Of a stretch of 64,000 nucleotides of DNA, positions 6,001-64,000 are shown piece after piece. The notes below the pieces were generated by a model. It did no database searches and was not told the DNA's origin. It saw only the letters and a list, made by a program, of their open reading frames with translations. The stretch comes from Owenia fusiformis (taxonomy: Eukaryota > Annelida > Polychaeta > Sabellida > Oweniidae): assembly GCA_903813345.2 (NCBI GenBank), contig CAIIXF020000008.1, forward strand, positions 2,615,341 through 2,679,340, in the 5' to 3' direction. Position numbers and translations under genes: made by a program. Position 1 is the stretch's first letter. Every line of letters begins with the position of its first letter.

Positions 6001-6614
6001 AGGTTAATTTCTTAAATCAATTGTACTAAGATGTAAATGTCTTTGTGAAACTCAAGAACGTGTCATAATTTATTTAAGACTGATCTTTTGTATTTGTAGA
6101 TCAGTATACAGAGAAAATACCAAAGTCACCAGTAAGAGAGCTGCTTGAGTTGGAACCTGAAACAACCAAGTTTGAGTAAGCAATCTTCAATAACAGAACT
6201 CCTGATTGGTTTTCTAAAGTACTTTTCTAAAGTTGAGAAAAATTGTAAGATCAAAATTTTCCTGAAAAAAGACAAGAATTATTTTGTTTTCCAGATATTT
6301 CCCTTACTTATCCACTTTACCAGCAGCCATCCTATTAATGTATCAGTAACCATAACAACGCACTGTATCCTAGTGATTTTATCCTCAGATTTATTTGTTA
6401 CAGGAAGCCTGATCGAACTATTGAGGGTAAGATTCGAGTGACAGTTAATGTGGTAGGAAAGGGCAAGTTCACTGGGGTGGGACGCAGTTATCGTATAGCG
6501 AAGGCCTCCGCAGCCAAACGAGCACTGAAAGGAATCAGACAAGCAGAGTTAGAGATGAGAAAGCAAATGTTGAAGCAACAAGCAATGTTTGAACTGACAT
6601 TTGGTGAACAGTAG
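2..6614 (+). CDS. dicer1: Dicer, 3' part of gene (eight exons, 5' end outside window)
   Basis: Dicer cuts double-stranded RNA into miRNA/siRNA duplexes. My exons are 2-169, 794-1007, 1221-3308, 3562-3787, 4104-4356, 5513-5684, 6100-6175 and 6404-6614. All have GT..AG borders and the phases join into one frame of 1135 residues ending in TAG. Seen in order: the linker/platform region before PAZ; a PAZ domain ([22 protein letters not shown]) early in the 2.1-kb exon; a ~250-residue polar, acidic linker; RNase IIIa with [13 protein letters not shown] and DCTEALIG (E604, D608, D780, E783 of this partial chain); RNase IIIb with [13 protein letters not shown] and [12 protein letters not shown] (E901, D905, D1008, E1011); and a C-terminal dsRBD in the last exon. 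All four metal ligands are present in both RNase III domains, so the enzyme should be active. The helicase and earlier exons lie to the left. The largest intron, 4357-5512, shows no gene. The animal Dicer assignment is firm. Dicer-1 versus Dicer-2 cannot be settled without the helicase, though the miRNA type fits best. Confidence 0.96.
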
Positions 6615-9735: not shown

Positions 9736-10280
9736 TTACCATAATTGGCTTATGTTGCTAACATGGGCCAATTAGCCATGTTTTCTTAGGGCTTTGTGTC
9801 TGATTGCAGTAAAAGTAAAAAATAAATGTATATGTATTAGTCAGTCAGTTCAAATGATTTTAAATAAGTAATGAATTATTATTATTTTGTAAAAATTCTG
9901 AATTCAGTATACATTCGAGAAGAGTATGCAAACCAACATCCACATTTAAAGTCTAATTTAAAAGTAGTGCTCAAAATTGTGATTGGAACACATACTTTAA
10001 TCTTAACTGAAGCATTTAAAATATCATGGAATAAGCATAATTACCTCAATAAAGTATATTTATGTGGACTTGCATTATATTATTTATAGTTTTATTTTGT
10101 TTTTATCTTGTAAGGGCTAACGATTGTAATTCTCATCCTCATAATCCTACATCTCACTCAAAATTCACTTTCTGAGAATACATTAAAGCTTGAAAAAATC
10201 CGCACTTATTAGCAGTATGACAAGTCCCAAATGGAATAAACTAATTAATTTTTGGGAATATTTAGGATGAGAATACTTGC
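9736..10280. other. Intergenic, no feature seen
   Basis: AT-rich DNA before the left edge of the segmental duplication. The 72-codon ORF at 9871-10089 has no family features. Confidence 0.45.
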
Positions 10281-10467
10281 TATTAGCCCTGTAACCATGT
10301 GTATGGTAACCTTAACCAGGATTGTCAAGCAGTGATCTAAGTGACAAGGGCAATATATCCCTGGGCATATTACAATAGAGATGGATCATGGTATACCCAT
10401 GAATGATGGGGAGGCTTAACATTTTGAAAATTCCATATTTAAATGAATTTTATATATTTCTTCTTGA

Positions 10468-10790
10468 ACAGAGCTTCTTTGTCCCTATACTAGGTACTTA
10501 GTATCATCAGCATATAAAATTTGATAGAAAAATCCGTCCGGTATTTGAGTTATTAAAGATTTTGTTTTTAACGAAAATGGAGACCATTTTGAAATTCAGC
10601 TGTCGTCTTGAAAATTTCTTCTTGCATGAGCAGAGCTCCAAATCCATCCACTGATATTTGAGTTATCAATGATTACATTTTTAACTACAACTGGTGGGTA
10701 TTTTGATAAATGGTGGCCATCTTGGAAATTTCCTCTTGAGCAGAGCTCCCTTTTCTCTATGGATCAGCATATAAAAGGACCAGGTGTAGT
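10468..10790 (+). repeat. Satellite family 'CCATTTTGAAATTC', two units
   Basis: Two ~145-bp units with the core ATGGAGACCATTTTGAAATT, then GAGCAGAGCTCC and ATCAGCATATAAA. Other arrays of the same family lie at 18530-18850, 31800-32430, 43190-43340 and, reversed, 60890-61950. This copy sits at the left edge of duplication unit A and recurs at the matching place in unit B. Confidence 0.75.
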
Positions 10791-11332
10791 ATGGCAAGTG
10801 ATTTTAGACGGTCATATCTTTCACCATGACTACTTTCTCATTAACACAATATGTTATCTTTTAAGTAAATGCTCAAGGATAATAAAAATATCAATAAAGC
10901 AATTCGAAAAATTATGAATAGGGAGTCAGGGACTCTATGTCAACATTTTTTTCAAAATGTTGAACCTATTTACTCAAAAGGGGATCTTCTTTTTCCGATT
11001 TTTATTGCATGAAAAAATTATTCAACAAGGGGTCCTACACGTCTTCAAAAGTTTTCGAAAGCTTGCCAAGTGTCCCAAATCAACTGCATACAGACTGGTT
11101 ATTTATGTATTACTACTTTGAGAGAGCATTTTAACCCATCTTGCGAGGTACGATAAGCGTTTCCTTGGAGAACCTTTTCGGAACTTTTTCAGAGGTCATA
11201 TCTTTCAATCTATAGTTTTGTATGTATATTTTCACAAATAGTGGTGCATTTTAAACTATATTTCATTTCGATTGGATGATTCAAATAACATTTAATATTC
11301 ATCTCTTCGTAAAATGGCGCCGCTTTACCATC

Positions 11333-12868
11333 CTATTGAGAGGCGTTGTTTGTTGGTGGTGGTCCTTGAAATGGGTTGGGTCCATCGCAGAACATGTATT
11401 CCACAACCTGCATGGGCATATTGTTGTCCTCGAACAACCCCAAAATGCCCTCCACGACCCCCACAGGGCAGCCTGTTTCCTTCCTAAACTCGTTGATCAT
11501 ACAAGACATACCCATACCAACAGAGTTCTTAGCGCTGAAGAAAGTCATAATAGAATAAATGATGTGCTGTGAATCCACTAGTACCAAGTGGATTTTCATT
11601 ATGTCTTAATTTGAGCGATTATGTAAAAGATGGATAGTAAGTTAATTTATAGATTCAATGACTCTTGTCTTCTATTTGTCTTCTAATTAAATTATATTGT
11701 AACTAGACAATAATAATAAAACGATTAAATTATAACAGGCACTTACAACTGGCAAACATCCAGGTCCAAATAACTTCTAAATTCATCATTCTTTATTATT
11801 AAACCAACACAGGTCTTTAGCATTCGGGGCAATCCGGTCATGGCTGTAAAGGAATTGCCTCTCAGACAAGCCGGAAGGGGTCGCCGCCCTTGTCCTTGTT
11901 CTCTTGGAGCTTAAAAGTAAAAATGATTATAACGATCTGTTAGGACATTGACACTGATTGTACATCGTTTATATACGTCCAGGAAGCCTGCATTACCTCA
12001 TTCTTTTTCCCGATCTAAGTATATATAAAATGTATGACAATACTTATAACTGATATAAAAACTATGTACTTTAGCTGTAAATGCTTCAGCGTAATGCTTT
12101 TGGAAAACAAACATGTAGTGCGATTAGCACCAAGAGTGCATTTTTAGAAACTTCATTTAAATAGCATTTCAGACACCCCAGGCCCATAACAGAATTATGC
12201 AAACATTATATGATACAGAAAATAACATTTTTATAGGTATTGATACTCACAGTTGTTATTCGGTTGTTCTGTTGTATAACCACTAACAAGGACACATCCC
12301 AACATAGCACTAAATGTAAATGAATAATTAAAAAATCAGAGAAACTTTTAGAAGACTAGATAATATTTTGCCAAATCCACATGTTAATATCTCAATACCA
12401 TTGCTCATCCTCAAATAATCATAACCTCATAACATATAGGTTCATATGTTTTAAAATTTATATGCCCTTCAACATTAGACTATAGAATAATTTTCTTAAA
12501 GGAAATTTCATCTAAATTCTCATTCTCAAGCCCTGAACGCAAAACGAATTGGGTTTGGGAGATAGGGTGAGTGACTCATGGGGCAAAGAACAAGGTATTT
12601 TATTTGATCAATGCGCAAAGCGTTTTTTAGTAAAGATATATAATGAAATCAAAATAAGATGTATGATTGATGCTTTTAAAATTTATTGTTTTATAATTTG
12701 AATGTTATACTATGTAATCTTGATATGTAATATGCCGCACTGGGACCTAAGGACCCATTTGCCACTGTTGTAAAAGTGTGTGCAAATAAATAAATAAATA
12801 AAAAAAAGTATCAAAGTAAAATGTCAAAACTGTCACTCCTCTTACCTGAGTATCAGAATCAACTTCAT
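11333..12868 (-). CDS. Secreted six-cysteine protein A (four exons), family not recognised
   Basis: Minus-strand gene built from four exons: 12868-12846 (ATG), 12309-12251, 11909-11747 and 11534-11333 (TAG). All introns are GT..AG and the phases join into 148 codons without a stop. The product starts with a signal peptide (MKLILILSAMLGCVLVSG), then a Pro/Gln/Arg-rich stretch (TTEQPNNNSPREQGQGRR), then a compact domain with six cysteines (PACLRG, LKTCVG, LDVCQF, MSCMIN, TGCPVG, MFCDGP) and a Pro-rich tail (NPFQGPPP). It is probably secreted and disulfide-bonded. I do not know the family. The paralogue in unit B keeps every exon boundary, all six cysteines and the TATA box. That conservation, with indels in whole codons, is the main evidence that the gene is real. 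Alternatives: it could have further 5' non-coding exons. Confidence 0.8.
12475..12812 (+). mobile_element. LINE 3' tail fragment ending in (TAAA)n
   Basis: Sequence absent from duplication unit B. It ends with GGGACCTAAGGACCCATTTG, a short 3' UTR and then AAATAAATAAATAAATAAA, the usual tail of a truncated non-LTR retrotransposon. No ORF with reverse transcriptase motifs remains. It lies inside intron 1 of six-cysteine gene A. Confidence 0.6.
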
Positions 12869-12930
12869 ATTTGCATTCTTTGAATCGTCTAGTTCGATCC
12901 AAGTTTTTATGATTTGAGTTGTTTTGAGGT

Positions 12931-12943
12931 TGATATTTATATT
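12931..12943 (-). promoter_or_regulatory. TATA box of six-cysteine gene A
   Basis: The minus strand reads CAATATAAATATCA about 65-75 bases upstream of the ATG. The same box, at nearly the same distance, is found at 27406-27417 in front of gene B. Transcription would start about 30 bases downstream, giving a short 5' UTR. Confidence 0.55.
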
Positions 12944-13472
12944 GACGATAGGGAAATCAAGGAAAATTAGCATTTTACAAATGTAACAAATTGCCAATTC
13001 ATAAAATCATATTTAATTGCTTTATTTCCTTTTTCTAAGTAAATGAGAAATATTGGTCTGTCGTCTGGTTCAATTTTGGCATTAGTTTGTCATTAAATAG
13101 ACACAATTTTAAAATGTAAATTATAGAACAATTTTAACATTGATAAAGCTATTTACTGTAGAAATTTTTGACAGTATATCCGAATCGTTTATTTTATTTA
13201 TCATTGAATCTGTCTATTTAGCTATTTTACAAAGTAATACATCATTACCAATCACTATATTTTCAATATTCTGATGAAAACATTTTGCAGGATAGCCTAA
13301 TTATCAGAAGCCTTCGTTAAAATATGTAATAAGTCATAATGGAATGACAATCATAATGTAGGAAGTTCGCACGTTTTGTAATAACTTCGTATTGGATCAA
13401 GGGCGTTACAATACCCGGGAATTTATCGGTTCGTCCAGTACTTGTTTGTGATAGCGCCCTCTGTAGGTCACT

Positions 13473-16400
13473 GTGCTTATAGCCTACAGTAATATAAGAA
13501 ATACATATATAGCGGGAACGACAATAATCAAAACGAAGACACCAGATATCCTGTGGGTTAAACTTTCAAAAAAGTTCTTTAATACAAGTAATGACATTTA
13601 CTTATGTATAACGTATTTTTCACCCGCAAACTATAACCCAAAAGGTAAATTCAATTCAGGGGATGACCCATACGAGATTTTGACAAAAGAAATAAATAAA
13701 TATTCTAATATAGGTGATGTTATGATTATGGGAGATCTTAATTCAAGAACAGGTGAAATACGCGATTTTGAAAATAATCACGGTTATGATGATCATATCC
13801 CAAACATTTTACTTTGTCCCAACGATGTCACCATCAATGAACGTTCCAGCATGGATTCAGTTGTTGATGCTTCGGGTAAGAAGCTACTAGACCTATGCAG
13901 GTCATCTAATTTACGAATTATAAATGGCAGAGTACTTGGGGACTCGCCCGGTAGATTCACCTGCCATAAATGGAACGGAAGCAGTGTAGTTGACTATTGT
14001 ATTATTCATGAAAATATGCTTCCAGATATTATGTACTTCAGGGTTCATGATAACCTTTGTGTGCTCTCTGATCATTGCAAGATTTCTCTATTAATGCAAG
14101 TACGAATACCAAACGACCACGGTAACAATCGGACTAAAAACAATGGGCATACTATCAAAATGAAACCAATCAAATATAAATGGGACACCCGTCGCGAGGT
14201 ACAATTTAAAACGGACCTCTCCAATAATTTAAAAACACGGAATGATATAAATGAACTCAATTACGAGCTAAACGACACCTATAATATTGATGATTGTATT
14301 GACAAGCTCGAAAAAATTATAATTAACACAGCAAAAAGAACACTACGAAAAAAGTTACCCTGTAAAAAGAAAGGGGGCTCGATATCTCAAAAATGGTTTG
14401 ACAATGATTGCAGTATACTGAAAAGAAAGGTTAAGTCAATTGGAGCAAAACTAATAAAGTCACCAAATGATAATATGATTAGAGGTAATTACTTCAAGTT
14501 ACTAAAGGAATACAGGAAATGCTGTAAGATAAAACAAAGGAAATTTAAAACTAATATGATAAATAAATTAGAAGAACTTTATGACAATGACCCTAAAGAA
14601 TATTGGTCCCTACTTGAGCAACTAAGGCACAAAGACGAAAACAATAAGTCCGCGTATATAACACCAGAGAAATGGCATGAACATTTTTCCAAATTATTTG
14701 AAAAGGATAAAAATACCGAAATCAACAAAAAAGTCAACGAAATTGTTACATCAATAGAAAATGACAATCATTTTGACGAACTTAGCTTCAGAATAACAGA
14801 AAACGAGGTTTACAAGGCAGTTAAGCAATTAAAGAACAACAAGAGTTCGGGTTTTAACGGCATTAGCTATGAAATGATTAAAGCGTCATACTCAGTTTTA
14901 AATAATGTAATCTGTAAAATATTTAACATATTACTAAGCAAAACGGTTTTCCCTGAGAAATGGAATATTTCATCAATCGTTACGTTATTTAAGAAAGGAA
15001 CGACGAAAGACCCTGGAAATTACAGAGGTATTTTTATTTCTGATTGCTTTGGCAAATTATTTTCAATAATTTTGTATAATAGACTTTACGCCTTTGTACA
15101 TGACCGAAAAATAATATCGGAAAATCAAGCCGGTTTCACTAAGAAAGCACGAACAACTGACCACATGTTCATAATACGAACCCTCGTGGATAAATATGTA
15201 CTAAGTGAAAAAGGGAATATATATATGTGTTTTGTTGACTTGAGGAAAGCTTTCGATACGGTATGGCATGATGGATTATTTTTGAAACTTTTGCAATCGG
15301 GGGTAAACGGTTTATTCTATAAAATGATAAAAAATATATATTCACAATCAAAAGCAAGAGTCAGACTAGATAATGAGGGTTTATTTACCAATGAATTTGA
15401 CTGTAACAAGGGAATAAAACAGGGGGACCCCCTAAGTCCTCTCCTATTTAATATATATATTAATGACATTATTAAAACATTAGATCTCAAAACAGACCCT
15501 CTATTAAATAAGAAGCGAATTGGAAGCCTCCTTTTTGCTGATGACTTAGTAATTATCGCATCCTCAAAAGATGAAATGCAAACCAAATTGGACAAATTAG
15601 AAAAATACTGCGAAGAATGGCACTTAAATATCAACACTGATAAAACCAAAATTATGGTAATGAATAAAAATGGTAGAATTATTGATAATCACTTCTTTAT
15701 AGGAAATTACAAAATAGAATCTGTTTCACGATACATTTACCTGGGGATGGAATTAAGCATAAGTGGGTCAATGAGACCTGCAGCCCAGCATGTCAAAGAC
15801 AAAGCTGAAAAGGCAAAATTTAAATTATTAAGTTTAATTTCTAATGGTAATATGAAACCATCATTATGCCTAAAACTATTTGATCAACTCATAAAGCCCA
15901 TATGCCTCTATGGATCTGATATATGGGGTACGGGTATCTTAAACTCGAGTAAAATTAAAAAAGACCCACAATGGGCATTAGAAAAGGGATATGATGGAAT
16001 AACATTTGAATCTCTTCATATATCATTTATGAAATCGATACTCGGTGTTAACAGAAAGGCCAGTAATGACGCTACACGAGGCGATTTAGGTAGGTTTCCA
16101 CTATTTATTTCTTTGTTTTATCAACAAATGAAATATCTTAATCATATTAATAATAAAGGAACCGACTCGCTTCTACGTGAAGCCCTTGAGGTAAATAAAC
16201 AACTGACAGATATGAATAAACAATCATGGCTCACGCACATCAATGATGTACTTAAATATATTTACAATGGTACTTCACCAAACTATTTAAACTTAAAACC
16301 AAGAGAAATTAAGAAATTACTGGAAAATAGATACATACAATTTTGGGAAACTAAAATAAATTCAAATAATGGTAAATTGAGGTTTTATAAGATAATAAAA

Positions 16401-16811
16401 GCAAAATGGAACAAGGAACCCTACTTGGATTTAATCAAAAATGGAATAGACAGAAATAACTTGACAAAGCTAAGAATTAGCGCACATAAATTAGAAATCG
16501 AAACAGGTCGTTACACAAAACCAATTACCCCTATTGAAGAAAGAAAATGTTCAATGTGTAACAAGAAAACCGGTTCAGAATGCCATTTCCTATTAGAATG
16601 CAATGAGTTAAAAGATGCTCGGTCAAGTTACATGGATAAAATAAAAAAACACTGTCAAAATTTAGAAAACATGAATAACGTGGAACATAAATTAATGTTT
16701 CTATTTAATTCAGAGGGAATAATATTAAATATACTAGCAAAATATATATCTAATATCTTTATCGAGAGAGAAAAAAAAACACGAAATGCATCCAATAAAA
16801 TCTTGCAATGA
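13473..16811 (+). CDS. LINE endonuclease / reverse transcriptase ORF, N-terminus missing
   Basis: A 1112-codon frame. The first ~220 residues are the C-terminal part of an APE endonuclease (MIMGDLNSRTG, then LSDHCKISLLM). Next is a linker, then a reverse transcriptase with KSSGFNGISYEMIK, QAGFTKKARTTDHMFIIR, CFVDLRKAFDTVWHDGLFLK, GIKQGDPLSPLLFNIYINDI and the active site FADDLVIIAS. The C-terminus has a CCHC knuckle (CSMCN...ECHFLLEC, spacing C-x2-C-x8-H-x4-C). Family knowledge: such ORFs nick target DNA and copy their RNA in place. The endonuclease N-terminus is lost through 5' truncation, so this copy is probably dead for retrotransposition although the RT part is intact. The start ATG is only the first in the truncated frame. 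Clade (jockey, CR1 or Rex-like) is not decided. Confidence 0.9.
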   Translation: MLIAYSNIRNTYIAGTTIIKTKTPDILWVKLSKKFFNTSNDIYLCITYFSPANYNPKGKFNSGDDPYEILTKEINKYSNIGDVMIMGDLNSRTGEIRDFENNHGYDDHIPNILLCPNDVTINERSSMDSVVDASGKKLLDLCRSSNLRIINGRVLGDSPGRFTCHKWNGSSVVDYCIIHENMLPDIMYFRVHDNLCVLSDHCKISLLMQVRIPNDHGNNRTKNNGHTIKMKPIKYKWDTRREVQFKTDLSNNLKTRNDINELNYELNDTYNIDDCIDKLEKIIINTAKRTLRKKLPCKKKGGSISQKWFDNDCSILKRKVKSIGAKLIKSPNDNMIRGNYFKLLKEYRKCCKIKQRKFKTNMINKLEELYDNDPKEYWSLLEQLRHKDENNKSAYITPEKWHEHFSKLFEKDKNTEINKKVNEIVTSIENDNHFDELSFRITENEVYKAVKQLKNNKSSGFNGISYEMIKASYSVLNNVICKIFNILLSKTVFPEKWNISSIVTLFKKGTTKDPGNYRGIFISDCFGKLFSIILYNRLYAFVHDRKIISENQAGFTKKARTTDHMFIIRTLVDKYVLSEKGNIYMCFVDLRKAFDTVWHDGLFLKLLQSGVNGLFYKMIKNIYSQSKARVRLDNEGLFTNEFDCNKGIKQGDPLSPLLFNIYINDIIKTLDLKTDPLLNKKRIGSLLFADDLVIIASSKDEMQTKLDKLEKYCEEWHLNINTDKTKIMVMNKNGRIIDNHFFIGNYKIESVSRYIYLGMELSISGSMRPAAQHVKDKAEKAKFKLLSLISNGNMKPSLCLKLFDQLIKPICLYGSDIWGTGILNSSKIKKDPQWALEKGYDGITFESLHISFMKSILGVNRKASNDATRGDLGRFPLFISLFYQQMKYLNHINNKGTDSLLREALEVNKQLTDMNKQSWLTHINDVLKYIYNGTSPNYLNLKPREIKKLLENRYIQFWETKINSNNGKLRFYKIIKAKWNKEPYLDLIKNGIDRNNLTKLRISAHKLEIETGRYTKPITPIEERKCSMCNKKTGSECHFLLECNELKDARSSYMDKIKKHCQNLENMNNVEHKLMFLFNSEGIILNILAKYISNIFIEREKKTRNASNKILQ

Positions 16812-16946
16812 TCAAGCACCCTTTGATTAGTTAATATAATATATAGATAATTAGTTAGGCTTTTTCATTTTTTTTTCTTTTTAAGCTGTACACTTTGCCC
16901 AAATGTGGGATACAAGTATAATAAAGCTCATAATAATAATAATAAT
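13477..16946 (+). mobile_element. 5'-truncated LINE with intact ORF2 remainder
   Basis: APE-type non-LTR retrotransposon inserted into the hAT-like element at 13398-17627. The 5' break falls inside the endonuclease domain near 13477. The 3' end is a short UTR and an (ATA)n run at about 16928-16946. It is the longest coding block in the window apart from the Dicer gene. The ORF has no frameshift or stop, so the insertion is young. Confidence 0.85.
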
Positions 16947-19409
16947 ACGGGGTAGGATATCGGGAATTCGGTCAGTTTCTATCCGTCGATTTCGCTATGA
17001 ATTGAAGCAAGTGTGACCACTTTATCCACTTAAACAATTTGATAATTGATTAAATCTTTAAACAAAATCGATAAACACGTTATACACTTCCTATCTCCTT
17101 AGAAATTAGCATGCATTTATGGATTGTGTTTTCGAACAAGGCTCGACCCACACCAATAGGGAAATCCTTATGCTAATTAGTATGACGTCATATTTTCCTG
17201 GGGAATCCTAGATTTCAAAGCCTCAGTCTGTTATTGTGTCAAATGTAAACGCTCTTGGGACGCTCTTTTGCAGACAGAAAATTGACAGATTAGCTTTTAA
17301 CTTTCAGCTTTGATGTTTAAATATTCTGTATTTCTACCGGACTTCTTGCTGAATATCATATAATGTTATAACTTGATTTGGACCATTGCCTGATTGATCA
17401 TTCTGAAATTTTGATTGTGATTCATGATTGATTGGCAAGAAAAATAATTCCTATTGTTTTCCAGCGAAGTCAAAATGTTACAGCATGAGTTATAATGTCG
17501 AGTTTGCATCATGTTAAATTCTGCTAGTGATATATTGGATAATCACATTTATGCGTGCGCGCGCAGCTCATCCAATGAACGAAACGCCACTTCCCGCTGA
17601 AATCACCGGGTATTGATCTTTCCCTTGATTGATCATAATAGGCTTCCGACGAATTAAATGTGCCGATTCATTCTGAGTTAAAAATTAATTGTGTGAACCC
17701 CCCCCCCTTCTCCCATTCTATGCTAAAAAAAACATTCAACTAAAAGATATGAAAGATATATGGACAGCAGCAGACAGACAGCAGCTTTGGAGATTGGTGA
17801 CTTTTAAAAAATTTCTTTTGTGCAATTTGAAAAATTGCTGATGCGAATGCTAGAAAACCATTGATTACTTACTGCTCAAGTCATCACGAAATCAAAAAAC
17901 CTTCTATAAACCAATCTAAATATTGGACACAGATTTATCAACTTCTCATTTTTATTATCAGGATACTGTGACAGTATAATTACTGTTCTCAGCATATTTC
18001 CGATATCATCAAAGAAAATATAACTTTTTAATGTCAAAAACGTTATTTTGTAAAAATGACCATGGGTAACAGGCTTCTCGCACACAGAGGCCACTGTGGT
18101 CCATTCATTGTTTAAGTATTTAAGTCAGTGCATATGGACTGATTATCATTGATTCTTTAGAAGTGTTCCTTCAAACTTTGCACAAGATGCGTAGCAACAT
18201 GTGCTAAGTTGAGGAAACAACGATCGAGTGGAATGAATCAGTCACAATGCATTGAGTATCGGCAGTGATTGGGCCTAAATTCTTTTCACACACTGCAAAA
18301 TATTTTATACAATATCACTTAAAAGATACGAATTGAGTTACTTCTGTTAGCCTTTCAACCATGTGTATGTTAACCTTAACCAGGATTGTCAAGCAGTGAT
18401 CTAAGTGACAAGGGCAATATATCCATGGACCTATTACAATAGAGATGGATCATGGTATACCCATGAATGATGGGGAGGTTTAACATTTTGACAATTCCAT
18501 ATTTAAATGTATTTTATATATTTCTTCTTGAACAGAATTTCTTTGTCCCTATACTAGGTACTAGGTATCACCAGCATATAAAATTTGATAGAAAATCCGT
18601 CCACTGGTATTTGACTTATTAACGATTTTGTTTTTTACGAAAATGGAGACCATTTTGAAATTCAGGTGTCGTCTAGCAAATTTCTTTTTGCATGAGCAGA
18701 GCTCCAAATCCATCCAGTGATATCTGAGTTATCAATGATTACATTTTTAACTACAACTGGTGGGTATTTTGATAAATTGCAGCCATCTTGGCAATTTCAT
18801 CTTGAGCAGAGCTCCTTTTTCTTTAAGGATCAGCATATAAAGGGACCAGGTGTAGTATGGCAAGTGATTTTAGTCGGTCATATCTTTCACCATGAGTACT
18901 TTCTCAAAAATACAATATGTTATCTTTCAAGTAAATGCTCAAGGATAATAAAAATATCAATAAAACAATTCGAAAAATGATGAATAGGGAGTTAGGGACC
19001 CCATGTCAACATTTTTTCAAAATGTTGAACCTATTTACTCAAAAGGGGATCTGCTTTTTCTGAAATTTATTGCATGAAAAAATTATTCAACTCCTAAACG
19101 TCTTCAAAAGTTTTCGATAGTTTGCCAAGTGTCTATTCTTTAAAAACAATAGAACAATAGATTTGTCCCAGATCAACTGCATACATACTGTGGTTATTTA
19201 TTTATTACTGCTTTGAGAGAAGCATTTTAACTCATCTTGCGAGGTACGATAAGTGTTTTCCTTGAGAACTTTTTCGGAGGTCATATCTTTCAATCTATAG
19301 TTTTGTATGTATAGTTTCACAAATAGTGGTACATTTTAAATTTCGATTGGATGATTCAAATAACATTTTTGATATTCATCTCTTCGTAAAATGGGGCCGC
19401 TTTTCCACT

Positions 19410-22400
19410 TTATTGCGAGGCATTGTTTCTCGGTGGTGGTCCTTGAAATGGGTTGGGTCCATCGCAGAACATGTATTCCACAACCTGCATGGCCATATTG
19501 TTGTTCTCATACAACCCCATAAGTTCCTCCACGACCTTCACAGGGCAGCCCGTTTCCTTCCTAAACTCTTTGATTATACAAGACATACCCATACCAACAG
19601 AGTTCTTAACGCTGAAGAAAATCGATCGTTGATATAATAAATAATGTCCTGTGAATCCACTAAATATAGCAGTTATAATATCTTTCCAAAAGATTTGGAA
19701 CCATTTTGTATACTTGACTTAATTCGAGCGATTATGTAAAAGATGTATGGTAAGTTTTATAGATTCAATGACTATTTGGCTTCTGATTAAATTATATTAA
19801 ATTGACAATAAAACGTATGGATTATAGTAGACACTTACAACTGGCAAACATCCAGATCCAAGTAACTTCTAAATTCATCATTCTTTATTATTAAACCAAC
19901 ACAGGTCTTTAGCATTCGGGGCAATCCGGACATGGGTGTAAAGGCATTGCCTCTCAGACAAGGCGGAAGGGGCTGTCGTCCTTGTTGGCCTCGTCCTCTT
20001 GTAGCTTAAACAAGGTGTCCCACCCAAACGCTCTTACATGCACGACGGAGCGTTTCATTCACGCGGAAATGCTCCGGAGCAAAATAAAATGGCAGCTAAT
20101 GAAGATTCCACTATGACCGTAAGTATTGTTTCTCTCGTTTCTCTTACATATCGTAAGTTATGGTGAAATATTATGTACCATTCGATGAACAATACCGTGA
20201 GCAAAGATCTTATTTATTCAACTTCTGGTGGTAAACTGTTATTTGCTCGATCAAAGCTCCGTAGTGTAGATCGAACGAATCTGAAGATGACGAATTGACC
20301 ACAAATTACGAACTAAACTAGTATTTCTATGAAAACGTTAATCTTTCTGTTAAAGTAGTAGATCACAAACTAGTATATTTTCATTTCCTAAAATCCCAGT
20401 CCAAATCCATTACTTGTTCTCGAGAAATCGCTTGTTTTCCTCGAAACGCTCCGTCGATTTAGGACACAATTTTAGAAACGCTCTTACCATTTTGTTTTGA
20501 TATCATTTTCAGATTATTAGAGAAGGAGTTCCGAATCGAATCAATGTGTCGTGCCGTGTGCTAAATCATAAAACTATTGAAAAAAATTATATGTGAATTA
20601 TTCTTTCTTCTTTTGATGCCACGGGGTATAATAGATCTTTTCTTTCTCTTCCTGAAAAGGAAAGGCAAGCTATATATTTCCTAAACAGATCTAGACTACC
20701 GGAGCGTTTCCAGTTCACTGTGTTAACCAGATCGGAGCGTTTCTTGAATATGAGAATGTCATCATTTTTAAGACTGGATTTTCGGTCATCAAATCACTAT
20801 TACGATAATGTATGGTATTGTATGGTGCGTTGAAGCATTGAAATTTGACTAAAATATACGTTGGTGCTCTAATCTTGGCTCATACCTCATACTCATATAC
20901 CTCTTATTCCCATTATTGGGAGAAATCGTCAGACGGCTCATTCCCGCCAGCCAGTTTTTCTACTCCGGAGCGTTTCTTTGTTTAATTTCAGTAATGAAAC
21001 GCTCCGTCATGCATGTAAGAGCGTTTGGGTTATACACCGTGTTAAAAGCAAAAATGATTATAACGATCTGTGAGGACACTGACACAGATTGTACACACCA
21101 TTTAGATACGTCCAGGAAGCATGCATTACCTCATTCTTTTTCCCGATGTAAATACAAACAAACAAATAAAATGTATGACAATACTTTTAACTGATATAAA
21201 AACTATGTACTTTAGCTGTAAATGCTTCAACGGCTTTTGAAAAACAAACATGTAGTAGACTGTAACCCAGTCTGTAGAAGTGCTCTAGAAATGCAACCTT
21301 CCTTACATGAAAGGTTACACATTCCAACCTATTTCAAACCATCTGTATGATTATACTGGACACTTTCTGGGTAGTTGGACTTTCTATAGGGGTGGCAGAC
21401 GGCCCTCAGACCAATTTATACCCCTACCCCCAAAAAACCATGGGGGTACTTTAATACCATCCAATAAAAAGAATACTAATGCATGTCAGATATTCATTGT
21501 TTTATATTGGGTAGGGCATGTTATGATTAATAAGTGCCAGAAATTTCCAATCTCTAACTTATATGGTTACCATAGAAACAGTATTTATATCTCCAGATAT
21601 TCTCAATTTGACCCCCTCCCAAATGTGTCCCTTTGTTCACAAAGTGAAATATTTCAAAATCTGTTTGGATTTTATGGCTGCTACTTTGTCAAAGTTTGTA
21701 ATATTATGTCTATATTAACACTAAAACACTTAAAAGTTGATATAATGATCCTATAAATCAATTATATTTATCAAATATAGTCACACATAGCTGCTTTCAG
21801 GGAAAAGTGGGCGTGGCACTTTTTGGTACTTGTGCGCTTGTTGCAGCATTAAATGAAAAATGCAGATTACACTAACAATAATTGACATTTAATTAGCATC
21901 TACTAATGTTTTGTAACATTGTAATATGTTCATTATCATTATTAGACACTTTAAATATTTTATATAAGTGTTATCCTGACCCTTCCCTATCATAGGTCAT
22001 CAATGGTCAAATGAACTTTTAGTGTAAGTCTTATAGGGTCCTCGGTCTTTTAAGTCTGTCAAGAGTCAAGTCTTACTTATTCATTGACTTGTTCCTAGAA
22101 TATGAATGGATAAGTTAAAGTCATCTAGAGCTATGAGTTACAATTAATTAATATGCTTGTTCAACAGTATTTAGAACCATTTTACCATGTTTACTGCAAT
22201 TGAAAAGTAATGAACAGTTCAATCCTTTTGGTATGATATTTGATGCTAGTGTGAATTGCATAACATTTATGATTAAACTTAAATGAACTAATATAACTCT
22301 GGCTACTAACCCTTCCCTAGTATCCTTCACATAACCTCTAAATCATCTTCATATCCATGGCCTAAATGGGGAAGGAGGGAGGGGTTACAAATAGTGACTG

Positions 22401-25400
22401 AGGATAATTTGAATCAAAGCAAGAAGACGTAATACTCAAAACTAGAAAGATTGGAGACCATTTATACCCTTCCTAATATTTTGCCTAATACATAACACTT
22501 AAATCTATTTTGTCAGACACTTGCTGATTCTTTTATCAATACCTCAACAACATCAGGCAATGTATGATCTGTCCAATGGATTAAAGATTATACTTGATTC
22601 TAATATGGCAAAATTAATTTTTCCTATGAATTGCATAGAGCATTATTTTGCAGTTATAATAAAATGCATCCATTCATTTATTGGCTCATTGTTAACAAAA
22701 AAGCTATTCTCTGGAAGGTACAGTATAATTTCTATTTGTATTTAGCAAAAATAATTGCAAGATAAACAATTTACACATGTTTCTGATATACTGTATTTTC
22801 AATGATTTCTTCAATAGTGGTTCGGTATACGTTTTTGAAATACTTCAAATAATTCCTAGACAAATCTGTTTAGTGTATGAAATCAAAAAAAGTAGATACA
22901 TTTGTCCCATACTTGGACATGTTTCAGATACATATAGCAGGTTTATAAATACTTATATTTTCATCAGTGGGCAGATATAGCTAATGTCCCGGCCTGAGAG
23001 GGCAGATATATTACACCTGCCCACTAAGTCATAATCATCATTTGTGTATGATTAGCAATGAGGGAAGTAGCATACTTAATACATATGTTAATAATCAATG
23101 ATTCGAGAATATGTGGATGAATACTTAAAAAACAGGAGAATCCTCCTAAGGCCAAGAAAACAAAATTAGACATGAATACATTCATATGGTTGAATTCTTT
23201 CTAACTCTGGCCAATTGAACAATGTGAACCAGATAAGAAAGATTGATATGGGATAAACAGATCATCCTATAGCCAGTTCATGCTATTAGGATTATCCCTT
23301 GGCGAATATAATATATCTTCCCTCAGGACCTAAGGCCTTTGGCCAATAGAAAATATCTTCCCTCGGGACCTACGACCCTCGGCCAGATATATTATATTGG
23401 CCTCGGGATAATTCCAATACCCTGAACCTCATAGAGGATAATCTCTATTTGTCTTCATCAATCATTATTATACATATAAATCGGGATATAAATATAACCT
23501 AAAGTAAGAAATCACATTCTCTAACCAGTAATATTTAATTTTAAAATTGGTAAATGATGATTATGTCACAATAGAATTGATGACCATGATTTATTTTAGA
23601 ATAAAACAGACAAAACAAAGGTTAACAAAAATCTTTAAAAATTTTGGTAAAACATAAATATTTTAAAATTGCTTGTTTTTCATCATTATTACTTCGATCT
23701 CCAAACCCCAAAAATTGAGTGTTACAAATTGTTTCAAGTTAAAGTATGCCTAATTGCATGAGCAAACTAGTAATCTTGTTGGATATTTTTCCTCGACAAT
23801 GCCTTATCTAATTCATCTATATACAAACTACTAGATTCCAAATGCTATTTTACAGGATGGGTGTTCATGAAAGTAACACTAAACATCAATTTTGTCATAA
23901 ACTGAACAATGCAGCTAATTGATTCTCCCATCTAAGCAACAGAGCCTGTTTTAATATATTGTAATTTCAAAATTGCCTCTAATTCAAGTTCTTCAATCAA
24001 ATCTAAAATGTACACAACTAGTAATATCTTTATACCACATGAGTAGAATGTTTGTTTCTTTCAAATTCATGCTTTCGTTAGAAACATGGATATCACTAAT
24101 TCATAGTTTTGATTCATATTCAAAATGGTGTGCATTATATATGAGGTTTAATTAATGGGAAGTTTTTAATACAGGGAAATACAATATATATGAGGGAAAT
24201 ACAATATACCTCCCCGAGTGGTTGAGGGTAGAATATTGTATTTCCCAAGAATTATACCTTGTACCCAAAATTATTGATCATATACTAAAATACGAAAATA
24301 TGAGAAATTGCAAAGAATGAAATTCCTGCAGGGGATTACTGAGCGGGTGATAAACCTGGCGATACATAGAGATTATCCTATATGAGGTTCAGGATATTGG
24401 GACTATCCCGAGGCAAATATAATATATCTGCCCGAGGGCGATTATGACGGAGTGGGCGGATATACTATATCTGCCCGCTCGCAACGGGACATAAAGCTAT
24501 ATCTGCCCGCTGATGAAAATATAAGTTTTTACAAACCTGCTTCATGTACCTGAAACACGACCAAGTATGGGATAAAGCGGGATATGCAGTACATGTATAT
24601 CCCCACTCACCTAAGGTATCAATTATATTCATGCATTTTATTTACCTAAAACACTAAGTATAGGATAAATAACTTTTACTGACAAATTGTATAAGTACAT
24701 GATTACATTAGTCACAACTACTCACTAAAAGGTTAACTTATTCATGGGCTTCCTCTAGTTGAAAGCCCATGACTTATTGCATGAAGAAATGTAATTCTAC
24801 ATGAAGATTTCAAATATGATATCACTTATTTGACTGAATTTTGAATTTTTAATGATGTAAAGCAAGATTATTTCTACTTGCATCTAAGTCTATTTCATTG
24901 TGTAAGTCAACAATTAATAAGGCAAATACATATCACTGGCTTCCCTGATTCATTTAGATTCCTTGCACTTTTAAAATCATCAATAATTCATATAGGGTTG
25001 AACTATCGAATAATGAAAACGTTGCAAATGATGTGATAGAAGTTTTTTTTACTATTTAGCTTGGAAATATTGCTGATATAGTTTTAATGTGATTTTAGGA
25101 AATTAAATGTTCTACTGAGGAACTTTGATTATGTCCAATTTTCTATGATCTTTAACTTTCTGAACAAGGTCGGGCTAAATTCTCATTGAGACGATGTTAA
25201 AAATCTTAATGTTGACTTCCTAAATGTTGAATTCTTTTGATTGTCATGAATTTAAGGTTCACACAAAATCTGAAGATCATCTAGTTTCAAACACAATCTG
25301 AATCTCATTAGGTTTGATGCGGAAGCAGTTTTACTTTAATCCAAAATAACAAATATGGTAAATCAATATATGTCTATGGTAGATGCTAGCGTGTAGTCCA

Positions 25401-27344
25401 ACCAGCACAAGTGCTGCCATCTACCTATCCATTCATCAGTTTAGCACCTAATAAGGTCAGTACTCATGGTAAAGCTTTTGTACCTTGTCTATGGTAAAAA
25501 TAAACCAAACAGAAATGTTAACTTGACACGATTGGTAATGCCCACCTTGAAGGGTGTAGGGATAAAGGGAAGGGTCTGGATAACACTTATATAAAATATT
25601 TAAAGTGTCTAATAATGATAATGAACATATTACAATGTTACACAACATAAGTAGATGCTAATTAAATGTCAATTGTTGTTAGTATAATATGTATTTTTCA
25701 TTTCATGCTGCAACAAGTACACACGTACTAAAAAGTGCCACACCCACTTTTCCCTAAAAGCAGCTATGTGTGACTATATTTGATAAATATTATTGATTTA
25801 TAGGATCATTATGAACACTTTTCGGTGTTTTAATGTTAAAATAAACATATTGATACAATTTTTGACAAAGTAGCAGCCATAAAATCCAAACAGATTTTGA
25901 AATATTTCACTTTGAGAACAAAGGGACACATTTGGGAGGGGGTCAAATTGAGAATATCTGGAGATATAAATACTGTTTCTATGGTAACCATATAAGTTAG
26001 AGATTGGAAATTTCTGGCACTTATTAATCATAACATGCCCTACCCAATATAAAACAATGGATATTTGACATGCATTAGTATTCTTTTTATTGGGTGGTAT
26101 TAAAGTACCCCCATGGTTTTTTGGGGGTAGGGGTATAAATTGGTCTGAGGGCCGTCTGCCACCCCTATAGAAAGTCCAACTACCCAGAAAGTGTCTAGTA
26201 TCATTATACAGATGGTTTGAAATAGGTTGGAATGTGTAACCTTTCATGTAAGGAAGGAGTTACAATTATCAGAGTGGGCCGTAGTCTATAGTACAATTAG
26301 CACCAAGAATACATTTTTAGAAACTTCATTTGAATAGCATTTCAGACACGCTAGTCCCACAACAGAATTATGCAAACATAATAACATTTTTTGTAGGTAT
26401 TATTTACTCACGGTTGTTGTTTGGTTGTTCTGTTGTATAACCGCTAACAAGGACACATCCCAATATAGCACTAAATGTAAATGAATAATTTTAAAAATCA
26501 GAGAAACTTTTAGAAGACAATGATATTTTGCCAAATCCACATGTTAATATCTCAATACCAGTGCTCATCCTCAAATATCATAACCTCATAACATATATAA
26601 GGGTTATGTACTGGGAGGTTTTGGATATGGGGTTTATACAGAGGGAGATATGCATATCTACCTGAGGGCATATCTCCCTGAGGGACCGTAGGGACCGAAG
26701 GTGGATGTGCATATCTCACGAGGGATGAACCCAATATCCAAACCGACCGTACATAACTGCTTTATCCTATACCAAGTAGAGTTTTCTAATTTTCTTTCAA
26801 TTTTTTCACTTTTTTATTTTTTCAATTTTTTCACATTTTTTTCAATTTTTTCAATTTTTTTTAATTTTTATTTCATTTTTTATTTTTTTCATATTTTTTC
26901 ATTTTTTCAATTTTTCCTATTTTTCATTTTTTACGAAGCGGGAAGATATGCCCTGGAGCGGGAGATATGGAGGTTCAGGATATGGAAACCTCAAAATCAG
27001 GATACGGGATATATCGTACCAACTTATCTCCCTAAAACTCTACTTGGCATAGGATAAAGGTTCATATGTTTTAAAATATACAAAATGCAGAGGCGCGGAT
27101 GAGGCAAAACTTAATAGGCGAGGCTAATTTACGCTACTAAAATAAAGGATATATATCACTACCTTTGGACCTCATTTTAACAGTTTTGGATGAAAAAGTC
27201 TGAAAATACATTACTTTTGAATTTCAAAAGACAATTGCCTCGCCTTATATTATAATGTCTTTTGACGTGTCATGGATTGTTTCAAAATGAAATATATAAA
27301 AACTGTCACTCCTCTTACCTGAGTACCAGAATCAACTTCATCAT
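19410..27344 (-). CDS. Secreted six-cysteine protein B (four exons), paralogue of A
   Basis: Exons on the minus strand: 27344-27319 (ATGATG start), 26470-26412, 20004-19839 and 19611-19410 (TAA). Lengths are 26 (23 from the second ATG), 59, 166 and 202 nt, against 23, 59, 163 and 202 in gene A, with the same phases. The product begins MMKLILVLSAILGCVLVSG, then an Arg/Gln-rich stretch and the same six-cysteine domain (PPCLRG, LKTCVG, LDVCQF, MSCIIK, TGCPVK, MFCDGP). Differences from A are mostly single substitutions plus one extra codon in the Gln/Arg stretch. Intron 2 has grown to about 6.4 kb through two transposons, one of which ends six bases from the exon-3 acceptor. The reading frame is intact, but correct splicing is in doubt. 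Function is unknown. Confidence 0.75.
20011..21041. mobile_element. TTAA-target DNA element with repeated GGAGCGTTTC motifs
   Basis: Flanked by an exact TTAAA duplication (20006-20010, 21042-21046). Unit A has the empty site (GCTTAAAAGT). Inverted ends start CAAGGTGT and CACGGTGT and continue CCCAAACGCTCTTACATGCA for about 50 bp. Some seven copies of GGAGCGTTTC or its complement are spread over both ends and the middle. TTAA targets point to piggyBac or Kolobok-like enzymes. A possible small exon pair (ATG at 20089, donor after 20118, acceptor before 20513) is weak. Confidence 0.8.
21290..21990 (+). repeat. Left arm of the 5-kb inverted element
   Basis: Begins AACCTTCCTTACATGAAAGG and ends near GTTATCCTGACCCTTCCCT. 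It contains a 149-codon open frame (21307-21756) that is matched in the right arm. The near-identity of the arms suggests recent insertion or gene conversion between them. Confidence 0.8.
22900..24590. mobile_element. Nested foldback element with GGGCAGATATA motifs
   Basis: The left end (22901-23020) reads TTTGTCCCATACTTGGACAT ... TTTTCATCAGTGGGCAGATA. The right end (24450-24580) is its reverse complement with ~80% match by eye. Further in, TAGAGATTATCCTATATGAG (about 24367) pairs with its inverse near 23445. Multiple GAGGGCAGATATA / TATCTGCCCGC hairpins occur. There is no coding content. It sits in the centre of the 5-kb element. Confidence 0.65.
25560..26260 (-). repeat. Right arm of the 5-kb inverted element
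   Basis: Reverse complement of the left arm with scattered substitutions. The frame at 26247-25798 (minus) matches the left-arm frame at most positions. Confidence 0.8.
26598..27058. mobile_element. Double palindromic insertion with polypyrimidine core
   Basis: Absent from unit A (empty site ACATATAGGTTCATATG near 12433). Two side-by-side palindromes: 26603-26758, whose ends GGGTTATGTACTGGGAGG and GTTATGTACGGTCGG pair, and 26761-27058, whose ends TTTATCCTATACCAAGTAG and CTACTTGGCATAGGATAAA pair. The second encloses ~160 bases of TTTTTCAATTTTTTC-like polypyrimidine (26775-26935). GAGGGAGATATGCATATCT hairpins resemble those in 22900-24590, so the two are probably related. Confidence 0.7.
27075..27290. 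repeat. Degraded copy of the 8236-8560 dispersed repeat
   Basis: Shares GATGAGGCAAAACTT, TAGGCGAGGC and AATTGCCTCGCC with the repeat near Dicer. It lies in intron 1 of six-cysteine gene B and is missing from unit A. Confidence 0.5.
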
Positions 27345-27405
27345 ATCTGCAGTCTTTGAATCGTCTAGTTTGATCCAACTTTTTATGATTTGAGTTGTTT
27401 GCGGG

Positions 27406-27417
27406 TGATATTTATAT
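27406..27417 (-). promoter_or_regulatory. TATA box of six-cysteine gene B
   Basis: The minus strand reads CCAATATAAATATCA, identical in its core to the box in front of gene A and at a similar distance from the start codon. Confidence 0.55.
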
Positions 27418-28552
27418 TGGCATTAGGAAATCAAGAAAGATTAGCATTTTACAAGTGTAACAAATTGCCAATTTATAAAATCATATTTAATTGCTTTATT
27501 TCCTTTTCTCTAAGTAAATGAGAAATATTGGTCTGTCGTCTGGTTCATTTTGGGCATTAGTTTGTCATTTAATAGACACAATTGTAAAATTTTTTAGGTT
27601 AAAACCTGGCACACTGAAAAACTTCGAGGGTACAATAAACAATATACAATCATAAAGCTATTTACTGTAAACATTTTTGACAGTATATCCGAATCGTTTA
27701 TTTATTTATCATTGAATCTGTCTAATAGCTATTTTACAAAGTAATACATCATTACCAATTACTATATTTTCAGTATTCTGATGAAAACATTTTGCAGGAT
27801 AGCCCAATTATTAGAAGCCTTCGTTAAAATATGTAATAAGCCATAATGGAATGACAATCATTAATGTAGGAAGTTCGCACTTTTTGTAATAACTTCGTAT
27901 TGGATCATAATAGGCTTCCGACGAATTAAATGTGCCGATTCATTCTGAGTTAAAAATTAATTTTGTGAAATCCCCCCCCCCCTTCTCCCATTCTATGCTA
28001 AAAAATCAGGGATGAATAAAAAACACATTCAACTAAAAGATATGAAAGATATATGGACAGCAGCAGACAGACAGCAGCTTTGGAGATTGGTGACTTTTAA
28101 AAAATTTCTTTTGTGCTGATGCGAATGCTAGAAAACCATTGATTACTTACTGCTCAAGTCATCACGAAATCAAAAAACCTTCTATAAAACCAATCTAAAT
28201 ATTGGACACAGATTTATCAACTTCTCATTTTTATTATCAGGATACTGTGACAGTATAATTACTGTTCTCAGCATATTTCCGATATCATCAAAGAAAATAT
28301 AACTTTTCAATGTCAAAAATGTTATTTTGTAAAAATGACCACAGGTAACAGGCTTCTCGCACATAGAGGCCACTGTGGTCCATTCATTGTTTAAGTATTT
28401 AAGTATTTAAGTGCATATGGACTGATTATCATTCTTCAAAGGTGTTCCTTCAAACTTTGCACAAGATGCGTAGCAACATGTGCTAAGTTGAGGAAACAAC
28501 GATCGAGTGGAATGAATCAGTCACAATGCATTGAGTATCGGCAGTGATTGGG

Positions 28553-58487: not shown

Positions 58488-59174
58488 TTAAAATGCTGTA
58501 TGTTTAACTCCATTTATAATCTTGGTTTTACCGAGACTTTGAGACTTTCCAGATTGTTGAGTGTTCATTCCACAGGAACAGTTTTCTTGAGAGTATTGGT
58601 TCAGAATACAGAAAACCTTTGATGTTTCAAACTCACAGTAATCATTGTCTGTATTGTCCTCAAAATGTAGCTTCAAATCATCATCATCATACTGTGAAGA
58701 AACAGTGTGAAGTTTATTTGGGTGAGATTCCTCTCTGATGATGTCATCATAGTTCGTGGTTGAAGCCCCGATAGGTGCGATGTATCCATTTTCACCTGGA
58801 ACAATAAACTCATCTGCGAAGTCGAGGAGATCATTCAGTGTTCCATTGCTGACCTTGTTCTTTTTCGCAGGGTGTGCACATTTGCCATTGTTTGTGATGT
58901 CATCATTGTCAGCATCTAAACTCTCCATTGATGATGAGATTCCACGTTGAACTATTTCCTCAATATTCTCACTTAGTTTCCTTATACCATCAGCTTGCAT
59001 TTTATTTTGAAGTCTGACTGCTGCATGTTTCATTACGTTAAACAGTTTCCCAATAGATGAACGGCGACTTTTAGCCCTTTTATTAACTTGTGGTGTTGGA
59101 TATTTTCCCTGGATTTGCATCCTCTTATCAGTTGTGTTTCCATCAAACATCTCCCAGGATACTTGTTTTGCCAT
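58488..59174 (-). CDS. Single-exon gene, basic conserved protein of unknown family, copy 1
   Basis: 228 residues from MAKQVSWEMFDGN to the stop. I chose this ATG because the in-frame ATG at 59303 lies upstream of a TATA-like box and has become ATA in the paralogue. Seen: a basic N-terminal third with NKRAKSRRSSIGKLFNVMKH, where RAKSRRSS looks like a nuclear signal or kinase site and GKLFNVMKHAAVRLQNKM like a basic amphipathic helix; an acidic/Ser middle (SSMESLDADNDDI); and a conserved C-terminal tail with SKVFCILNQYSQENCS and GVKHTAF. No enzyme motif and no membrane segment. The product is probably a small nuclear or regulatory protein; I do not recognise the family. The compact intronless form with TATA box and nearby AATAAA recalls early-response or Notch-target genes, but that is a guess. 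Confidence 0.75.
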   Translation of the reverse strand: MAKQVSWEMFDGNTTDKRMQIQGKYPTPQVNKRAKSRRSSIGKLFNVMKHAAVRLQNKMQADGIRKLSENIEEIVQRGISSSMESLDADNDDITNNGKCAHPAKKNKVSNGTLNDLLDFADEFIVPGENGYIAPIGASTTNYDDIIREESHPNKLHTVSSQYDDDDLKLHFEDNTDNDYCEFETSKVFCILNQYSQENCSCGMNTQQSGKSQSLGKTKIINGVKHTAF

Positions 59175-59280
59175 GATATCTGTTGTTGTTAACTTGGAGA
59201 TACTGATGGTTGTTTTGTAAATAGACTGTTGACTGATGAGAGCTATCAGAAACTGATACTGATTTTGGACAGCACACAGC

Positions 59281-59290
59281 CTTTTATTTG
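59281..59290 (-). promoter_or_regulatory. TATA-like box AAATAAAAGG with initiator
   Basis: Minus strand AAATAAAAGG, with ATCAGTAT (initiator-like, A at 59261) about 29 bases downstream. Both are conserved in the duplicate (63951-63960). An E-box CAGGTG lies ~40 bases further upstream (about 59323-59328). This places the transcript start inside the upstream open frame and supports the start at 59174. Confidence 0.55.
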
Positions 59291-59303
59291 AAACAGTTGA
59301 CAT

Positions 59304-63847: not shown

Positions 63848-63950
63848 AGCTGCAGTAGTTGTCTTAGAGATATTGATAGTTGTTTTGTAAATAGACTGTT
63901 GACTGATGAGAGCTATCAGAAACTGATACTGATTTTGGACAGGACACAGC

Positions 63951-63960
63951 CTTTTATTTG
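63951..63960 (-). promoter_or_regulatory. TATA-like box of copy 2
   Basis: Minus strand AAATAAAAGG followed by the same ATCAGTAT initiator-like sequence as in copy 1. The window ends 40 bases further upstream. Confidence 0.5.
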
Positions 63961-64000
63961 AAACAGTTGATATGTTTGTTTAGAAATGCCATTTGCACCT

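What the first reader, a model, noticed from the sequence alone, without database searches (positions are those of the whole stretch)
11333..27344. Tandem pair of four-exon genes for an unrecognised secreted six-cysteine protein
Seen: two minus-strand genes in duplicated units, exons of 23-26/59/163-166/202 nt with identical phases, a signal peptide made by joining exons 1 and 2, six cysteines and a Pro-rich tail, all conserved, with indels only in whole codons. Only the last exon shows up as an ORF; the rest are too short. I do not know this family, which may be lineage-specific.
Basis: partly seen in the sequence, partly recalled or inferred. Interest (0 to 1): 0.75.

Follow-up and report, generated by a model that had tools for sequence, protein, structure and literature searches.

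The report
Secreted six-cysteine gene family, annelid
In what looks like the genome of a marine tube worm, two neighbouring genes and three relatives elsewhere each appear to encode a small secreted protein with six fixed cysteines; it matches no family I could search, but it is the ordinary kind of unnamed gene family found in many animal genomes.

Summary
The genome holds five such genes on three chromosomes, all open, with the same exons and phases and invariant cysteines, C-x(13-18)-C-x18-C-x12-C-x10-C-x(25-27)-C. dN/dS is 0.32-0.55 in ten of ten pairs, so these are constrained protein-coding genes. No Pfam, NCBIfam or PDB match. Twelve chromosomes, 498 Mb and annelid haemoglobin-linker matches fit Owenia fusiformis. 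Against full function of B: an abundant DNA transposon sits exactly at its exon 3 splice acceptor and displaced the polypyrimidine tract. Expression and presence in other animals could not be tested. Best reading: a small secreted, disulphide-braced, probably helical effector or binding protein, perhaps lineage-restricted. Real and unnamed, but of a familiar kind.

The parts
12846..12868 (-). gene A exon 1 (23 nt): start codon and first part of the signal peptide
   Evidence: ATG, donor GTAAGAGG, phase out 2
12251..12309 (-). gene A exon 2 (59 nt): rest of the signal peptide, likely cleavage after an invariant Gly, start of the mature chain
11747..11909 (-). gene A exon 3 (163 nt): linker, Cys1-Cys3, motif EFRSYLDLDVC
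11333..11534 (-). gene A exon 4 (202 nt): Cys4-Cys6, Pro-rich tail, stop
12934..12941 (-). TATAAATA box of gene A, 73 nt before the ATG; also 72, 69 and 67 nt before the ATG in B, C and D, absent in E
27319..27344 (-). gene B exon 1 (26 nt)
26412..26470 (-). gene B exon 2 (59 nt)
19839..20004 (-). gene B exon 3 (166 nt); its 3' splice site abuts a transposon
19410..19611 (-). gene B exon 4 (202 nt)
27409..27416 (-). TATAAATA box of gene B, 72 nt before the ATG
20011..21041 (.). 1031-nt non-autonomous-looking DNA transposon (ends CACGGTG/CAAGGTG, 5-bp target duplication TTTAA) inserted at the exon 3 acceptor of B
21297..26257 (.). about 5-kb stretch bounded by 692-nt inverted repeats (95% complementary) in intron 2 of B
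10274..18273 (.). duplication unit A (10274-13399 and 17631-18273), split by an insertion that carries a reverse-transcriptase ORF at 13467-16811
18339..28552 (.). duplication unit B (18339-20010, 21042-21256, 26289-26597, 27279-28552), split by insertions

Best explanation
SHOWN: A and B are the tandem pair of a five-gene family in this genome. Each gene can encode one open chain of 137-150 residues from four exons with the same phases: a 16-19 residue signal-like N-terminus ending at an invariant Gly, a variable linker, and a region with six invariant cysteines. Selection has kept the protein. INFERRED: the chain enters the secretory pathway, is cut after the invariant Gly, folds as a compact, mainly helical domain of 13-15 kDa braced by three disulphide bonds, and is released from the cell. 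The nearly unchanging Cys2-Cys3 segment (TCVG..IK..EFRSYLDLDVC) would carry the shared structural or binding surface, while linker, exon 4 and tail diverge between copies and tune specificity. The most likely role is an extracellular effector or binding protein made by particular epithelial or gland cells (TATA box in four of five copies), multiplied by duplication. About 0.9 that it is a real secreted protein family; about 0.65 for a helical three-disulphide fold; about 0.35 for the effector/binding role.
For: Five intact genes, identical exon order and phases. Six cysteines and the core of the motif before Cys3 invariant; internal spacings 18, 12 and 10 invariant in 5 of 5. dN/dS 0.32-0.55 in 10 of 10 pairs, at most 1.2% of codon bootstraps reaching 1. 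Coding gaps in whole codons, 23 of 23 in A-D. N-terminal hydropathy peaks of 2.47-2.90 in A-D; 22 of 672 ATG frames in the window that stay open for 25 codons reach 2.4. TATAAATA at -67 to -73 in 4 of 5 genes against 0.13 per kb in the window. Exon-only AlphaFold models give helices (one of four residues or more in exon 3, three in exon 4), at low confidence. Constraint on the mature chain is strongest between Cys1 and Cys3.
Against: No transcript evidence at all. No trained signal-peptide predictor; E's hydropathy peak is only 1.85, and 97 of 672 control frames reach 1.8; E has no TATA box. AlphaFold confidence is poor (mean pLDDT 49.7 and 53.7, pTM 0.20 and 0.37), so the helical fold is weakly supported. 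B's exon 3 acceptor has 8 of 16 pyrimidines and 6 G, the weakest of 15 acceptors (E's exons 3 and 4 follow with 9), so B may be mis-spliced. Exon 4 to Cys6 between A and B shows dN about equal to dS on few sites. Net charge runs from -5.3 to +2.8, which fits no single charge-based role. Nothing in the sequence names a partner, tissue or activity.
Confidence: 0.6

Rival explanations
1. A structural or matrix protein of the worm's secretions (tube, mucus or adhesive), with disulphides for cross-linking, rather than a soluble binding effector.
For: Signal-like N-terminus, fixed cysteines, Pro/Asn-rich ends in A and B; the likely species lives in a tube (general knowledge; tube-dwelling polychaete papers seen only as listings).
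Against: Short chain, no repeats or long low-complexity core, five gene copies; an even number of cysteines with fixed spacing suggests internal bonds.
Confidence: 0.2
2. A host-defence (antimicrobial) protein.
For: Small, signal-like N-terminus, six cysteines, tandem duplicates, moderate dN/dS.
Against: Mature chain of 118-131 residues with net charge -5.3 to +2.8, so no consistent cationic character; no Pfam match.
Confidence: 0.15
3. A protein hormone, cytokine or pheromone-like ligand with a helical disulphide fold.
For: Size, signal-like N-terminus, six fixed cysteines, one strongly conserved segment.
Against: No sequence match to a solved ligand; no dibasic processing site kept across the five copies (by eye).
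Confidence: 0.2
4. A decaying or non-expressed duplicate family; in particular B is a pseudogene because of the transposon at its exon 3 acceptor. For B alone I put this at about 0.4; the score is for the family.
For: Transposon exactly at the 3' splice site and the poorest pyrimidine tract of 15 acceptors.
Against: Five of five frames intact; dN/dS below 1 in 10 of 10 pairs, though selection on B may predate the insertion. The target duplication kept the AG, and in-frame downstream AGs exist in exon 3 (sequence).
Confidence: 0.05

Closest known systems
Lineage-restricted families of small secreted cysteine-rich proteins in animals (a general kind, recalled)
   Same: Signal-like N-terminus, fixed even cysteine number, small gene family with a tandem pair, variable linker and tail.
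   Different: This cysteine spacing and the EFRSYLDLDVC motif match no Pfam, NCBIfam or PDB sequence. Lineage restriction is untested.
Insect odorant-binding proteins (six cysteines, all-helical; spacing recalled)
   Same: Similar size, six cysteines, possibly helical, signal-like N-terminus.
   Different: Cys2 and Cys3 are 18 residues apart, not 3, and there is no Pfam match.
Saposin-B-like domains (six cysteines, helical; pattern recalled)
   Same: Six cysteines, possibly helical, signal-like N-terminus.
   Different: No C-x2-C pairs near the ends; no Pfam match.

Membership tests
Any Pfam-A or NCBIfam family | Profile match | tested here: not met
   0 families at E up to 10 (HMMER's filters drop most matches above about 0.1): 5 of 5 members in Pfam-A, A only in NCBIfam
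Any family with a solved structure | Sequence or profile match in the PDB | tested here: not met
   Best E 3.9 (B alone) and 0.36 (five-member profile), to unrelated intracellular proteins; similarity of folds not tested
Insect odorant-binding protein | Three residues between Cys2 and Cys3 (recalled) | tested here: not met
   18 in 5 of 5
Saposin B | C-x2-C at both ends (recalled) | tested here: not met
   Spacings 13-18, 18, 12, 10, 25-27
Cationic antimicrobial peptide | Clearly positive net charge (recalled) | tested here: not met
   Mature charge at pH 7 -2.3, +1.7, +2.8, -5.3, -3.3 in A-E
Secreted small cysteine-rich protein (general kind) | Signal peptide | tested here: met
   By hydropathy and the -3/-1 residues in A-D; E is not clear; no trained predictor was available
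Secreted small cysteine-rich protein (general kind) | Even number of fixed cysteines in the mature chain | tested here: met
   Six in 5 of 5
Secreted small cysteine-rich protein (general kind) | Disulphide bonds and secretion in fact | not testable with these tools
   Needs protein chemistry

The most novel reading that the evidence does not exclude
A protein family that arose within oweniid annelids (or in annelids), with no homologue elsewhere and a new three-disulphide helical fold, in which one copy (B) is being reshaped because a transposon landed exactly on its splice acceptor and the target-site duplication rebuilt the AG.
Probability: 0.25. Interest if true: 0.5.

Novelty: new member of a known kind. 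Interest (0 to 1): 0.34.

Why it matters
It gives complete gene models for a family whose first two exons (23-92 nt) could easily be missed by gene finders, with paralogues spanning dS from about 0.17 to over 1. If confined to oweniids, which branch early among annelids (abstract starts), it would be a candidate taxon-restricted secreted protein for gland or larval biology. The splice-site insertion in B is a natural test of whether a transposon end can serve as an acceptor region. Whether these genes are already in a published annotation was not checked.

Tried and rejected
Sixth member: the pattern for Y-x-DLDVC hit 6 places, and the reversed control pattern also hit 6. Five are the family; the sixth (L022) is not followed by the expected donor, and another frame stays open across it and looks by eye like a membrane-bound enzyme, so I rejected it as chance. 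The two weak extra hits of the E query (E 1.6 and 2.7) run across the expected exon 3/4 junction without an intron; I took them as chance and did not read them. The D query found no further gene. These searches score only the best candidates, and withheld stretches read N, so more distant members are not excluded.

Relatives outside the genome: profile scans of viral contigs and of prokaryotic genomes found 15 and 25 pattern matches and no relative; neither collection is one of animal genomes. Papers: five listings showed nothing on such a family in titles and abstract starts; one search looked for the assembly size and found nothing useful. I read only passages of PMC9977687.

Species: COX1 was not found in the assembly and an 18S search gave no answer, so the species rests on chromosome number, size and one annelid family.

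Structure: only contiguous exon pieces of A and B were folded. I did not search folds with these models because their confidence is too low.

dN/dS: Biopython's YN00 failed for 6 of 10 pairs; the 4 that ran gave 0.47-0.60. In one search, bootstrap replicates with undefined dS were counted as 0, which lowers the interval ends of the saturated pairs with E. The hydropathy control used fewer windows than the genes; one search repeats it alike and replaces it.

Full report
1. The observation. Gene A (minus strand) is 12868-12846, 12309-12251, 11909-11747, 11534-11333; gene B is 27344-27319, 26470-26412, 20004-19839, 19611-19410. Each intron begins GT and ends AG, cumulative phases are 2, 1, 2 in both, and the products are 148 and 150 residues, 85% identical. 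The two genes lie in a tandem duplication of about 3.8 kb of shared sequence, now split by insertions.

2. More than chance. Exon queries against the window's own genome (498,259,871 bases, 525 contigs) found five places for exon 3 and five for exon 4: A, B, a third copy C about 250 kb away on the same chromosome (C8), D on C6 and E on C1. Queries with the divergent copies E and D gave the same five genes, plus two weak hits (E 1.6 and 2.7) that I consider chance. I located exons 1 and 2 of C, D and E in the flanking DNA by similarity, GT/AG and phase; the five genes then have four exons, phases 2/1/2 and an open frame of 414-453 nt including the stop. Because phase guided the choice, equal phases are partly built in for the exon starts of C, D and E; exons 1 and 2 of E and the start of exon 3 in C, D and E are the least certain parts.

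3. Selection. dN/dS (Nei-Gojobori, own script) is 0.42 for A-B and 0.32-0.55 over ten pairs; codon bootstraps reach 1 in at most 1.2% of replicates (A-B). Biopython gave 0.35-0.58 by the same method, and 0.47-0.60 by YN00 in the 4 of 10 pairs where that ran. dS in pairs with E is above 1.2 and near saturation. Constraint on the mature chain is uneven: strongest between Cys1 and Cys3, weakest in linker and tail; in A-B the stretch from exon 4 to Cys6 has dN about equal to dS (0.10 each) on few sites. In A-D, 23 of 23 coding gaps in the six pairwise comparisons are whole codons (not independent; E was not in that comparison), against 4 of 26 non-coding gaps in A-B. The 300 nt upstream are also 67-74% identical between C or D and the other copies, as alike as the weaker exons, which may reflect a conserved promoter.

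4. The protein. The N-terminus has a hydrophobic core and an invariant Gly followed by [YF]TT, a plausible signal peptidase site. Hydropathy peaks are 2.47-2.90 in A-D and 1.85 in E; of 672 ATG frames in the window open for 25 codons, 22 reach 2.4 and 97 reach 1.8, so the case for E is weak taken alone. The mature chain is 118-131 residues, 13.4-14.7 kDa, with six cysteines in 5 of 5 and spacing C-x(13-18)-C-x18-C-x12-C-x10-C-x(25-27)-C; net charge varies from -5.3 to +2.8. The Pro-rich tail is well conserved only in A and B. AlphaFold on single exons (window sequences only, two rows each) gave helices at low confidence: exon 3 mean pLDDT 49.7, exon 4 53.7. I treat 'helical' as an inference.

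5. Promoter. A TATAAATA box lies 67-73 nt before the ATG in A, B, C and D, and not in E; the motif occurs 17 times on the two strands of the 64-kb window, 0.13 per kb.

6. Against full function of B. A 1031-nt transposon (20011-21041) lies directly before the exon 3 acceptor of B, with inverted arms of 54 nt, the target duplication included. Its ends in two other copies (CACGGTG, 5-bp target duplications GACTA and AAATA) show that the duplication in B is TTTAA, so the A of the acceptor AG comes from the duplicated target and the G is original. The former pyrimidine tract now lies about 1 kb upstream. The new one has 8 pyrimidines of 16, the lowest of 15 acceptors; E's exons 3 and 4 have 9. B may be spliced poorly or differently. 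The element is abundant: 838 first-look candidates, of which 40 were scored and all 40 matched.

7. Families. None of the five proteins matches Pfam-A at E up to 10, A matches no NCBIfam model, and a search of the PDB with B and with the five-member profile gives only chance-level matches (best E 3.9 and 0.36). Known six-cysteine kinds that I recall (odorant-binding proteins, saposin B) differ in spacing.

8. Organism. Contigs C1-C12 are 31.9-62.2 Mb, C13 is 0.66 Mb and C14 0.19 Mb, so about 12 chromosomes. The annelid erythrocruorin linker family PF16915 has three matches over its cut-off on C6; that this family marks annelids is recalled. The passages I read of PMC9977687 give 505.8 Mb and 12 chromosome-scale scaffolds for Owenia fusiformis. 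I therefore think the genome is Owenia fusiformis or a close relative (about 0.8). COX1 was not found.

9. What it is. A small family of genuine genes for a probably secreted, six-cysteine protein that is not in the libraries searched here. How it acts is inference: a disulphide-braced extracellular effector or binding protein with one conserved segment and divergent ends. Matrix protein, hormone-like ligand and defence protein are rivals that only expression and protein data can separate. Whether it is lineage-specific was not testable: no animal proteomes could be searched, and the scans of viral and prokaryotic contigs without a relative do not bear on it.

10. Verdict. Observation confirmed and extended from two to five genes; interpretation supported. 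Such unnamed secreted families are common in animal genomes (general knowledge), so interest is moderate to low.

Noticed in passing
window 20011-21041: Abundant DNA transposon without an obvious coding region (838 first-look candidates, 40 scored), ends CACGGTG, 5-bp target duplications; ends and 5-bp duplication recall Transib-type elements (recalled, not tested).
   Followed up: partly
window 21297-26257: Stretch of about 5 kb bounded by 692-nt inverted repeats, 95% complementary, in intron 2 of gene B; each arm carries an open frame of 153-155 codons.
   Followed up: no
window 13467-16811: Open frame of 1114 codons with a reverse transcriptase domain (PF00078), a LINE-like element inserted in duplication unit A upstream of gene A.
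   Followed up: partly
window 1184-4422: Dicer gene (PAZ and two RNase III domains), best PDB matches fly Dcr-1 and then mammalian Dicer for 1184-3337; a further ORF at 6339-6614 was not searched.
   Followed up: partly
window 58488-59309 and 63146-63979: Two duplicated minus-strand ORFs of 273 and 277 codons, alike to each other, no Pfam match.
   Followed up: partly
L013 3100-4900: Repeat array seen by eye in intron 2 of copy E.
   Followed up: no
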